A stretch of DNA of 64,000 bases from Pestalotiopsis fici W106-1 (taxonomy: Eukaryota > Ascomycota > Sordariomycetes > Amphisphaeriales > Sporocadaceae), in the NCBI RefSeq assembly GCF_000516985.1, contig NW_006917093.1, positions 2,170,001 through 2,234,000 on the forward strand. Direction: 5' to 3'. Below the pieces are notes generated by a model. It searched no databases. It was given only the letters and a program-made list of their open reading frames with translations, and had not been told where the DNA came from. Both the position numbers and the translations under genes were made by a program. Of this stretch, positions 59,245 through 62,476 are shown one piece after another (position 1 is the first letter of the stretch; every line of letters starts with the position of its first letter).

Positions 59245-59889
59245 ATGAAGGCCACATTCATCACATCGTCGGTCCTCTTTGCATGCCTGGCATGCGCTCT
59301 CCCAGTTGCCCCCGCCGCTCAGAATGAGGTCAGCGTGAGGTCAGCGGCCAAGGCAGAGGCCTGGGACTATGGCACGGCTGAGAAGCGTGGCAGCAACTCG
59401 ACAACATTGCCCTCTCACTCCCAGCCCAACCAGGCTTGGGACTATGGCAAGCGCGGCGACAAGGTCGACACTGATGAGGCTTGGGACTATGGAAAACGTG
59501 GCGAGCACAAGAAGGTGGACACGGACGAGGCATGGGATTATGGAAAGCGTGGTGAACGTGGTGGTGACCATGGCAATCACAAGCCGGGTGGTGGTGATGA
59601 GGGATGGGACTATGGCAAACGCAGCGACGACTCCAGTGTCAACACCGATGAGGCATGGGACTATGGCAAGCGCAGCAGCGACTCGACAGTGGACACGGAC
59701 GAAGCATGGGACTATGGCAAGCGCGAGAACCACCACAAGGTCAACACGGACGAGGGATGGGACTACGGCAAGCGTTCTGACTCGACTGTCGACACCGATG
59801 AGGCCTGGGACTACGGCAAGAAGCGAAGTGATTCGTCCGCCGACTCTGGTGACGGCGACGAGGGCTGGGACTACGGCAAGAAGGCATGA
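59245..59889 (+). CDS. Secreted Kex2-processed repeat peptide precursor, ten (A/G)WDYG cores
   Basis: Single exon, 214 residues. Residues 1 to about 24 form a signal peptide (MKATFITSSVLFACLACALP, cleavage probable after VAPA). Ten WDYG cores follow at 40, 65, 80, 97, 121, 138, 155, 172, 188 and 208. Copies 2-8 are followed directly by KR, copy 9 by KKR, copy 10 by KKA at the C-terminus, and copy 1 by TAEKR. Ala precedes W in seven copies and Gly in three (5, 8, 10). Spacers are acidic and Ser/Asp-rich, often ending VDTDE or VNTDE. There are no cysteines after the signal peptide. KR is the Golgi Kex2 site, so several related peptides of about 12-24 residues ending in WDYG would be released, with C-terminal basic residues trimmed by a Kex1-type carboxypeptidase. 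The layout matches fungal RiPP precursors and alpha-pheromones, but the core matches none I know. The product could stay linear or be modified. Confidence 0.93.
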   Translation: MKATFITSSVLFACLACALPVAPAAQNEVSVRSAAKAEAWDYGTAEKRGSNSTTLPSHSQPNQAWDYGKRGDKVDTDEAWDYGKRGEHKKVDTDEAWDYGKRGERGGDHGNHKPGGGDEGWDYGKRSDDSSVNTDEAWDYGKRSSDSTVDTDEAWDYGKRENHHKVNTDEGWDYGKRSDSTVDTDEAWDYGKKRSDSSADSGDGDEGWDYGKKA

Positions 59890-62476
59890 AGGAATCAAGT
59901 CTAGCGGATCAACGATCAGATCAAGTCCAGAGGGCCCGGGATCTGCGACATGCATGGGAGGATATATAATGAGAGGACTATAAAGACGTCCGATTCATTT
60001 ATATATACCCCCATTCGACTTGTCACATTTCTGCCATGACCCTCTCCCGAGTCCCGTGCGAGCCATGGAGACATTATATATGGACTTTGCGCACCTCTAG
60101 CCACGGTCCTATTCCCATCGCGATATATCAAAAGAGGCTTACGCTCAACCGCCAGCCGCTCATCGCATCAATCAACACATGATTCCGCCCGCCCGTCGCT
60201 GGAGGTCGACTGGGCAAAAGTTTTTGCACCAAAACGCAATCATCACTACGCGCCATCCATACTGATGGCAATACCAAACCTATCAATCTTAATCGACCGA
60301 CGTCCCACCTTGGCAGCCAAGGTCCGTCTTTTTGTTACTGGAGCTGGAGTGTATAGGTTACAGAGGAATTTGTCGGCATTTGTTGTACTTGTATGTCTGA
60401 CTGGTCTGTTTGTTTGTCTTTGTATTTAGCATAGCGTTCTGGGGTTAAAATCTATGTCTGTTATACACTACAAAAATTTTGCAACCACAAATATCCTCTT
60501 GCATGATTTCTCGCGATGATAGTAGGTATAGTACTTTTGCTCATGATATGATGATGGATTTCCCAGGTGGTTTTATTGCATGTATTACTCCGAGCAAGCA
60601 TGATGCGTAACGCAGTAGCATCGCATATGTTGAATTCCCACGTGTCGTGCAAGGGACCTAGGGATTACAAGGGGAAGGGTTGATCAAGAGGCCTGGGCAG
60701 TGGGCGAGGGTCTCCCGTAATTTTTTTTTCTTTTTTCTTTTCGGTTCTCGCGGTAGAGGCAACGAACGGGGGGCGGTTCTGAAAGTAGGTACACTGTAGA
60801 AGCACTACCACCACCAAAAACTCAGCCGCAATGCAAATGCAAATGCAATCTATTTTGACACATTCAGGTGCCAAGGGCTCGGCTGGTCGGGGGAGGGCTT
60901 TGGATGGTGGCTAGGCCAACTCTTGTTTCTTCTTCTTACCTCGTTTCCTGCCCTCCCCTTCTTTAGTCTGTTCGCCTCGCCTGTCAAGAAATGTCTTGTA
61001 CAACCATTAAACGTCAAAGGTGGTACCGAGTCTTCCGCATTTACTAGGGGGGGGGGTTAGGTGGGCACACACGGGCGCGCGCGCGCCAGCCAGCGAGCGA
61101 GCGAGCGGGTGGGCGGGATTGTACGTGCTTGGGGGGATGGAGGGGGCGGCCCCCAGCCGGGGCTGCTTTTTTTGGCGCTGACGTCAAAATTAGTTGCGAG
61201 ATGGGAAGTAGTAGTGGTAGTAGTAGGAGCATTGACATTTGGTTTAATGCATTGGCAAAATCCTACCTCATGTTGGGTACGATTGATTCAATGGGATTAT
61301 TCCCAATTTTTACAGGGCACAAAAAAGGTGAACAAGGGGGATCAGAGAGAGTACCCAAGTAGGGGCTGCTGTTGGCTGGCATTATTTGACATGGGGTTGT
61401 GATGGTGGTGGTGTTGGTGGTGGTGATGGGAGGTTTCCTCCTCTTGTCTTGGCAGATGGCACATGGGGGCAAAAAACACAGAGGCAATGATACTCTGACC
61501 TACATAGTACGATCGATCATGCTCATTGATTGGCGATCCGCATAGCCTAATCCAGCACAATAGTGTACAGAGTAGAGGGTTTTTCCCTCTTCTTCTGTAT
61601 CTTTCATGTCAGATGCGCAAGCGGAGGCTGATCAAGAAACCAAGGAAAAAATGCGGAGAATGCGCGGACGGGCGAGATGGGTAAATACCAAGACCAAAAG
61701 TGTAGCGTCGCTCGGCGTCGTCGTAAACTGTACGAGGCATTCATCATCAAAAAAATGGAGAGAGTAGAGGAGCTCCATAAAGAGGCAGTCCAGTCAGTCA
61801 GTGCCAGGGTTATCGGCGTTCACTTCTTTGTGATCGCAAGCATGGGTTCGGCTTTAGCCTCCTGCGTCGACTGGGTTTACTGTGTATTTTTTTCGTCAAC
61901 ACGCACACCCCCCCTACCAACTCACCCTGGGCAAAAGCGGACGCCCGGATGAGAAACCTTGAAGGCCAAGAAGCCCTTCACCCATTTCGCTCCGTTTCGG
62001 GGGTCATTTCATGGTGGGCTTTCAATGCCCGAAGATTTGATGCTTGATGCGCATTGTAAGCACTCAAATTCAAAGTTATAACCAAATGCAATAGGGGCAT
62101 ATGTTCAGTGATGCCCAAGATGCCTTTTTCTCCCTAGGCAATATTCATCCGAGCAAGTTACATATTTGTGTTCAATGCAGGTATCATTATATGTACATGA
62201 GAGAAGACATGGGCTTAAAGCAGCAGCAAATCATCGCTGCACCTACTAAAATCTGCTACCCATTGGCTCGGGTCTCTCGAGTTCCACAGGCCCGGTGACG
62301 CCCAAGGAAGGAGGCTGTAAACGAACTGGGCTCGCTCGAAAAGAGAGCTGCCAAGATCAAAAGTGGCCAAGCCCCATCTCCCAGACGTGGCAATGGTGAT
62401 CCAAAAGGGTAATCGGAAACAAGAAGCTAGGTTAGTTGGCTAGCAAAGTAGTCCACTGCCTGGCTGGAAGGGATTT

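What the first reader, a model, noticed from the sequence alone, without database searches (positions are those of the whole stretch)
59245..59889. Candidate undescribed Kex2-processed peptide family with (A/G)WDYG core
Seen: a signal peptide, ten WDYG cores, dibasic KR or KKR after nearly every copy, acidic spacers ending TDE(A/G), and no cysteines. Known: this architecture defines Kex2-processed repeat proteins, which include precursors of the dikaritin RiPPs (ustiloxin, phomopsin, asperipin), epichloecyclins and mating pheromones. Inferred: one transcript would release several near-identical secreted peptides. The core is aromatic and acidic, unlike the Trp/Cys-rich alpha-pheromones of related fungi, and unlike the dikaritin cores I know.
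Basis: partly seen in the sequence, partly recalled or inferred. Interest (0 to 1): 0.88.

Follow-up and report, generated by a model that had tools for sequence, protein, structure and literature searches.

The report
Fungal secreted WDYG-repeat peptide precursor
A fungal gene that seems to have been overlooked by its genome's annotation appears to encode a secreted protein that is cut into about ten small peptides, most ending in the letters WDYG, and the same short motif recurs in secreted proteins of other plant-associated fungi; what the peptides do is unknown.

Summary
Bases 59245-59889 (+) encode a 214-aa precursor with ten WDYG cores after a probable signal peptide; Lys follows nine cores, and KR or KKR follows eight. 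The genome is Pestalotiopsis fici W106-1, and three protein searches found no annotated P. fici counterpart. Between the ten copies the core codons differ only synonymously, while spacers change amino acids freely. Orthologues exist in Truncatella and Seiridium. WDYG repeats with dibasic sites also occur in Didymella, in metagenome proteins, in a second P. fici protein (PFICI_13229), and in Colletotrichum, where they form the pro-region of a cysteine-containing secreted protein; shared descent outside the first three genera is not proven. I file the window gene as a Kex2-processed repeat protein (KEP) with an apparently undescribed core. It fails the context test for dikaritin precursors: the nearest UstYa match on its contig is 3.1 Mb away. 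It lacks the cysteine core of alpha-pheromones, but I found no alpha-pheromone gene elsewhere in this genome, so a sexual role is not excluded. Most likely Kex2 and Kex1 release linear acidic peptides ending ...WDYG that act as secreted signals. The processing is inferred and the signalling role is speculative; there were no expression or peptide data.

The parts
59245..59889 (+). Whole precursor gene, 214 aa, single uninterrupted frame, one copy found in the genome
   Evidence: one match in G000 by protein search; two DNA patterns hit only this locus
59245..59298 (+). Probable signal peptide (residues 1-18, MKATFITSSVLFACLACA); the cleavage point is my estimate
   Evidence: most hydrophobic 11-residue window starts at residue 9 (2.5 Kyte-Doolittle against a maximum of 0.19 after residue 25); N-terminus similar in P0001 and P0002
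59362..59373 (+). Core 1 WDYG, followed by TAEKR (extended form)
   Evidence: the first copy is of extended form in P0001, P0002 and P0003 too
59437..59448 (+). Core 2 WDYG, followed by KR
59482..59493 (+). Core 3 WDYG, followed by KR
59533..59544 (+). Core 4 WDYG, followed by KR
59605..59616 (+). Core 5 WDYG, followed by KR
59656..59667 (+). Core 6 WDYG, followed by KR
59707..59718 (+). Core 7 WDYG, followed by KR
59758..59769 (+). Core 8 WDYG, followed by KR
59806..59817 (+). Core 9 WDYG, followed by KKR
59866..59877 (+). Core 10 WDYG, followed by KKA and stop

Best explanation
The gene encodes a secreted Kex2-processed repeat protein. A signal peptide sends it into the secretory pathway; the body is a string of mostly acidic spacers, each ending in WDYG and, in most copies, a dibasic site. 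Kex2 cuts after KR/KKR, Kex1 trims the basic residues, and about eight linear, acidic peptides of 13-22 residues ending in ...WDYG-COOH leave the cell, plus one extended N-terminal piece (...WDYGTAE) and one C-terminal tail. WDYG is the functional unit and most likely acts as a ligand-like signal sensed by other hyphae, a host plant or neighbouring microbes. Shown: the gene, the repeats, synonymous-only variation in the core, and relatives. Inferred from known Kex2/Kex1 rules: cleavage and trimming. Speculative: the signalling role and its receiver.
For: Ten cores with dibasic sites after a probable signal peptide. Between copies the four core codons differ only synonymously (46 synonymous, 0 nonsynonymous codon differences in 180 pairwise comparisons), while the four codons before them show 76 nonsynonymous of 180 and the four at +6..+9 show 132 of 153. 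Orthologues in Truncatella angustata (P0001, 45% identity over 74% of the query, 6 cores) and Seiridium cardinale (P0002, 42% over 67%, 5 cores) keep the leader, the cores and most KR sites. WDYG recurs in all 20 proteins returned by the three searches; with the window's protein that makes 21 proteins and 95 units, 92 of them exactly WDYG (the search words themselves favour WDYG and my expression counted only W[DN]Yx and SDYG). In PFICI_13229 each of 4 units is followed by a dibasic site within 14 residues. The genome holds one exon-level match to the Kex2-type P-domain. No UstYa gene is nearby, as for most KEPs: 22% of 7878 had one within 15 genes (PMC7329392, abstract and table notes).
Against: No transcript, peptide or phenotype data. 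No annotated P. fici counterpart appeared in three searches, which could also mean low expression. The spacers, most of each predicted peptide, are poorly conserved, odd for a ligand unless only WDYG counts. A WDYG C-terminus is not universal: in PFICI_13229, Didymella P0003 and the first copy of several precursors, 2 or more residues stand between WDYG and the basic site, and of the 3 cores of P0020 only one is followed by a dibasic site before the next core or the end. The AlphaFold model is uninformative (mean pLDDT 44.7 from 3 sequences). In Coprinopsis, kep knockouts had no detectable phenotype (PMC9769878, abstract).
Confidence: 0.55

Rival explanations
1. A RiPP precursor whose WDYG cores are side-chain cross-linked (Trp-Tyr), as in dikaritins, by UstYa-type or other oxidases encoded elsewhere in the genome.
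For: Repeat precursor with the core ending in Gly before KR; two aromatic residues one apart; the genome has many UstYa matches (48) that could act in trans.
Against: No UstYa match within 3 Mb on the contig. Pfam scans of 20 of 61 window ORFs of at least 150 aa and 10 of 56 ORFs of at least 110 aa in the 30 kb to the right showed no tyrosinase or UstYa; the other ORFs were not scanned for tyrosinase. Published core motifs (EDYXI in PMC6339444 section 10; YXIX in a PMC7329392 passage) do not match.
Confidence: 0.12
2. A sexual pheromone: in this lineage the WDYG precursor serves as the alpha-type pheromone.
For: Same architecture as alpha-pheromone precursors. The full motif W-C-x3-G-(Q/E)-x-C-W (recalled) was not found anywhere in this genome. 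Two half motifs gave 18 and 11 hits against 4 and 0 for the reversed control; all 29 were translated and none holds the motif more than once in its frame, so no repeat precursor was found.
Against: No cysteine after the signal peptide. Sordariomycete alpha-pheromones are described with two conserved Cys, and Pleosporales have their own PYG[L/M]P[I/V]G peptide (PMC6339444 passages); a Didymella protein carries WDYG all the same, and Colletotrichum, listed in the pheromone-annotated type G-2 (PMC7329392 Table 2), does too.
Confidence: 0.1
3. The WDYG repeats are a processed pro-region or secretion aid, and the peptides have no activity of their own.
For: In Colletotrichum the repeats lie between an N-terminal conserved region and a Cys-containing domain, ending RVRKR just before that domain, like Kex2 pro-domain effectors (PMC8528282, passages). 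Repeat number varies from 3 to 8.
Against: The Pestalotiopsis, Truncatella, Seiridium and Didymella proteins have no downstream domain to assist; the strict conservation of WDYG is unexplained.
Confidence: 0.15
4. A surface or cell-wall repeat protein or Rep1-like repellent (structural peptides).
For: Some Kex2-processed repeat proteins, such as Rep1 of Ustilago, give fibrils on the hyphal surface (PMC8528282 passage).
Against: The eight predicted ...WDYG peptides are acidic (net -1 to -5); Pfam gave only one non-significant match.
Confidence: 0.08

Closest known systems
Kex2-processed repeat proteins (KEPs) as defined by Le Marquer 2019 and Umemura 2020
   Same: Probable signal peptide, at least three similar repeats separated by KR/KK sites, small predicted products
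   Different: Core WDYG is not among the conserved motifs named in section 10 of PMC6339444 (pheromones; EDYXI; DADAATXYV[A/V]D; YVW[G/A][G/S]; SPPHKT; QKLKVD; XSDW). Both surveys used annotated proteins (PMC6339444 section 24, PMC7329392 section 13), so an unannotated gene could not be in them. Whether type G-9 of PMC7329392 (includes Pestalotiopsis, 0 of 48 with DUF3328) holds any WDYG member could not be checked: its logo is a figure and supplements were not open.
Dikaritin precursors (ustiloxin, phomopsin)
   Same: Repeated core with Tyr, KR sites
   Different: Different core; no UstYa gene nearby
Ascomycete alpha-pheromone precursors
   Same: Signal peptide, KR-separated repeats
   Different: No Cys in the repeats; none of the nine pieces that follow a KR starts with the STE13 signature X-A or X-P (pieces; signature defined in PMC6339444 section 24)
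Colletotrichum WDYG-repeat secreted proteins (P0004, P0005, P0007, P0008, P0011, P0013, P0016, P0019)
   Same: (D/E)WDYG followed by KR or RARKR-type sites, 3-8 copies, after a hydrophobic N-terminus
   Different: Carry an extra C-terminal Cys-containing domain; BLASTP of the window protein with P0004 aligns essentially the repeats. One (P0013) bears a UniRef name beginning 'Ecp2 effector prote', but Pfam gave no Hce2 match at E<=1 for P0004 or P0013

Membership tests
KEP (Kex2-processed repeat protein) | Signal peptide | tested here: inconclusive
   Hydrophobic window from residue 9, similar N-terminus in orthologues; no SignalP-type program run
KEP (Kex2-processed repeat protein) | At least three similar repeats bounded by KR/KK/RR | tested here: met
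   Ten cores; KR, KKR or KK directly after nine
KEP (Kex2-processed repeat protein) | Repeats of at least 8 aa, none over 100 aa (Umemura) | tested here: met
   Predicted pieces 13-28 aa after trimming; Umemura's own repeat-scoring was not rerun
KEP (Kex2-processed repeat protein) | Kex2 cleavage in vivo | not testable with these tools
   One exon-level Kex2-type P-domain match exists in the genome; cleavage itself needs MS
Dikaritin RiPP precursor | UstYa (DUF3328) genes in the cluster | tested here: not met
   48 matches in the genome, nearest on contig C3 about 3.1 Mb away
Dikaritin RiPP precursor | Core of ustiloxin/phomopsin type (YXIX / EDYXI) | tested here: not met
   Core is WDYG in all ten copies
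Dikaritin RiPP precursor | Cross-linked mature product | not testable with these tools
   Needs MS
Ascomycete alpha-pheromone precursor | Cys-containing core of W-C-x3-G-(Q/E)-x-C-W type (motif recalled) | tested here: not met
   No Cys after the signal peptide
Metazoan-type amidated peptide precursor | Amidating enzyme PAM in the genome | tested here: inconclusive
   No PF03712 match, but the control genomes were silent too; PAM is reported missing throughout the fungi (PMC6529398, passage)

The most novel reading that the evidence does not exclude
WDYG is the pharmacophore of a previously undescribed, non-sexual secreted peptide family of plant-associated Pezizomycotina, conserved (or repeatedly re-evolved) across Sporocadaceae, Didymella and Colletotrichum, delivered either from stand-alone repeat precursors or from the pro-region of a secreted cysteine-containing protein, and sensed by a conserved fungal or plant receptor.
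Probability: 0.25. Interest if true: 0.75.

Novelty: new member of a known kind. Interest (0 to 1): 0.48.

Why it matters
The functions of KEPs are described as largely unknown (PMC9769878, abstract). A four-residue core shared by distant fungi and by precursors of different architecture gives a compact, directly testable ligand candidate and a specific mass list for peptidomics. It also suggests that surveys based on annotated proteins can miss such genes.

Tried and rejected
Dikaritin cluster: rejected on genomic context (partial ORF scans). C-terminal amidation suggested by the G-K-R order: not favoured, because PAM is reported absent from fungi and many relatives have WDYG followed by non-basic residues; the genome search itself was empty but uninformative. 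Weak Pfam matches to adipokinetic hormone (best E 0.0069, below cut-off) and to Csm6_6H (E 0.23) are taken as chance. Alpha-pheromone gene as a contrast: two full patterns gave 0 hits; two half patterns gave 18 and 11 hits, more than their reversed controls (4 and 0). I translated all 29 (7; all 29) and each shows the motif once only in its frame, so the contrast stays open. Colletotrichum C-terminal domain: no Pfam match to it in P0004 or P0013, no convincing solved relative (best E 0.048), model too poor for a fold search (mean pLDDT 38.5), so none was run; in the P. fici genome a Colletotrichum query (P0016) matched only the window gene's repeats, not significantly (best E 0.478). Umemura type G-9 as the same family: not testable; one search listed no named Alternaria, Bipolaris or Pyrenophora member, which argues against it, but only the 7998 best candidates were scored. 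Paper searches on alpha-pheromones with Xylariales/Pestalotiopsis (20 of 189 listed), Kex2/UstYa/Xylariales (0 papers) and KEP function (15 of 1773 listed) showed nothing on WDYG in their listings.

Full report
What is there. Bases 59245-59889 on the + strand form a single open frame of 214 codons plus stop. The stop-to-stop frame starts four codons upstream of the ATG. The N-terminus is hydrophobic: the best 11-residue window starts at residue 9, and no window after residue 25 comes near it. The rest contains ten WDYG cores, 45 to 75 bases apart. All Trp and Tyr residues after residue 20 are in these cores. The residue after the core is Lys in 9 of 10 copies; the core is followed by KR in 7, KKR in 1, TAEKR in 1 and KKA-stop in 1.

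More than chance. Shuffling the protein 20,000 times never gave more than one WDYG. More telling, the ten copies differ in their core codons only at synonymous sites (GAC/GAT, TAT/TAC, GGC/GGA): 46 synonymous and 0 nonsynonymous differences in 180 codon comparisons. The four codons before the core gave 54 synonymous and 76 nonsynonymous of 180, the next four upstream 17 and 138 of 180, and the four at +6..+9 gave 11 and 132 of 153. The comparisons are pairwise among ten related copies, so they are not independent events. Trp has one codon only, so 45 of the 180 core comparisons could not vary synonymously. The outer codons are compared at fixed offsets although the spacers differ in length, so part of their difference is misalignment. 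With these limits the pattern fits selection on the core peptide and not merely recent duplication.

Which organism. The genome G000 (51.7 Mb, 20 contigs) is Pestalotiopsis fici W106-1. P0015 (PFICI_13229) matches it at 100% over 109 of 109 residues on C11, and the contig length reported for P0015 (2,529,862) equals that of C11. The published assembly is given as 52 Mb in 118 scaffolds (PMC4320822, passage); I suppose that small scaffolds are left out of the held copy. Three searches of the protein collection found relatives but no P. fici protein corresponding to the window ORF, so it is probably unannotated. One copy was found in the genome.

Relatives. One search found two orthologues, Truncatella angustata P0001 (137 aa, 6 cores) and Seiridium cardinale P0002 (134 aa, 5 cores), sharing the leader ...ALPV.P...NE(V/L)SV, the cores and most KR sites. 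Profile searches added Didymella exigua P0003 (5 WDYG, 1 WNYG; in 4 of 6 units WDYG is followed by three or four residues before the basic ending), Colletotrichum proteins with 3-8 repeats followed by a Cys-containing domain, P. fici PFICI_13229 (3 WDYG and 1 SDYG) with its relative P0020 (3 WDYG; 54% identity), and metagenome proteins, of which P0009 (4 copies of WDYG followed by KR, KR, RKR and RK) resembles the window gene most in layout. In all, 21 proteins including the window's contain 95 units matched by my expression (W[DN]Yx or SDYG), 92 of them exactly WDYG. In PFICI_13229 each of the 4 units is followed by a dibasic pair within 14 residues (RK, RR, RR, KR), which makes it KEP-like too, though its products would end beyond WDYG; in P0020 that holds for only one of three units.

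Limits of that comparison. Only the 7998 best candidates were scored. P0014 has E 0.0034, and P0015-P0020 have E from 0.016 to 0.9. Pairwise BLASTP of the window protein with Didymella P0003 and metagenome P0009 includes weakly similar leaders, while with Colletotrichum P0004 it covers essentially the repeats, and with PFICI_13229 it is marginal (best E 0.0003 for one comparison). So descent is plausible for the first, and convergence is not excluded for the others.

Context. Pfam scans of 20 of 61 window ORFs of at least 150 aa and of 10 of 56 ORFs of at least 110 aa in the 30 kb beyond the window's right end show, among others, a PDR-type ABC transporter, a NIPA magnesium transporter, a DEAD-box helicase, an M1 peptidase and, further downstream, an acetyltransferase, a lipoxygenase and a homeobox protein; no UstYa or tyrosinase. 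A genome-wide search found 48 exon-level UstYa matches, none near; on contig C3 the nearest is at 5.37 Mb against 2.23 Mb. In Umemura's survey 22% of 7878 KEP genes had such a neighbour, at a mean distance of 3.09 genes (PMC7329392, abstract). The window gene belongs with the rest.

How it probably works. By the known specificity of Kex2 (after KR) and Kex1 (removal of C-terminal K/R), the precursor would yield GSNSTTLPSHSQPNQAWDYG, GDKVDTDEAWDYG, GEHKKVDTDEAWDYG, GERGGDHGNHKPGGGDEGWDYG, SDDSSVNTDEAWDYG, SSDSTVDTDEAWDYG, ENHHKVNTDEGWDYG, SDSTVDTDEAWDYG, an N-terminal piece ending WDYGTAE and a C-terminal tail (masses; one piece has an internal KK that might be cut as well). This is inference. 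The G-K-R order would be an amidation signal in animals, but PAM is reported missing throughout the fungi (PMC6529398, passage). I think a secreted linear signal is the most likely role. The main alternatives are a cross-linked RiPP, a pheromone, an inert pro-region, or a surface peptide. The pheromone alternative could not be closed: the full Cys-containing core pattern has no hit in this genome, and all 29 half-motif hits, which exceed their reversed controls (18 against 4, 11 against 0), are single occurrences without a repeat precursor. This may only mean that the gene differs from the patterns. AlphaFold gave no confident structure for the precursor, which is expected for a repeat precursor but also for an alignment of only three sequences.

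Literature. The string WDYG with KEP-like neighbours was not found: a search for WDYGKR, AWDYG, WDYGK, EAWDY and GWDYG returned one paper, on a human iodide transporter. WDYG anywhere returned 44 papers, 40 listed; many titles concern oligosaccharyltransferases or melanin enzymes and none listed is about KEPs. The two KEP surveys do not contain it in their main texts. What I saw of the papers: PMC6339444 abstract, outline, sections 6, 10 and 24 and passages; PMC7329392 abstract, outline, sections 6, 8 and 13 and passages; PMC9769878 abstract and outline; PMC8528282, PMC6529398 and PMC4320822 passages. Supplementary tables could not be read, so an unlabelled entry for an annotated relative is possible.

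Verdict. A real gene, and a repeat precursor of a known kind, with an apparently undescribed core motif that reaches beyond its genus. The sequence evidence is good, the processing is likely, and the function is unknown.

Noticed in passing
L017 (G000:C11:763505-763831, -): Second P. fici secreted-type protein with WDYG motifs (PFICI_13229, 3 WDYG + 1 SDYG, each followed by S or A and a dibasic pair within 14 residues); its relative P0020 (54% identity) keeps three WDYG but only one such dibasic pair.
   Followed up: partly
P0004, P0005, P0007, P0008, P0011, P0013, P0016, P0019 (Colletotrichum proteins): WDYG repeat array varying from 3 to 8 copies between species or strains inside an otherwise very similar secreted-type protein with a Cys-containing C-terminal domain and a basic RVRKR site directly before it.
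   Followed up: partly
window 59341-59955 (-) and 59339-59983 (+): Two other long open frames (204-217 aa, depending on where the start is taken) overlap the gene in other frames; they probably follow from the repeats. No relatives were sought for them.
   Followed up: no
L011:71-1570 and L011:3067-4828 (C3:2244071-2248828): Trichothecene acetyltransferase-like frame next to lipoxygenase frames, about 10-15 kb beyond the right end of the window.
   Followed up: no
L012:3756-6781 (-): A homeobox-KN plus C2H2 frame overlapping the end of a frame with a Tc5 transposase DNA-binding domain; possibly one gene.
   Followed up: no
G000 whole genome: No repeat precursor with the usual Cys-containing alpha-pheromone core was found by pattern search in P. 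fici: 0 full-motif hits, 29 half-motif hits all translated, each a single occurrence.
   Followed up: partly
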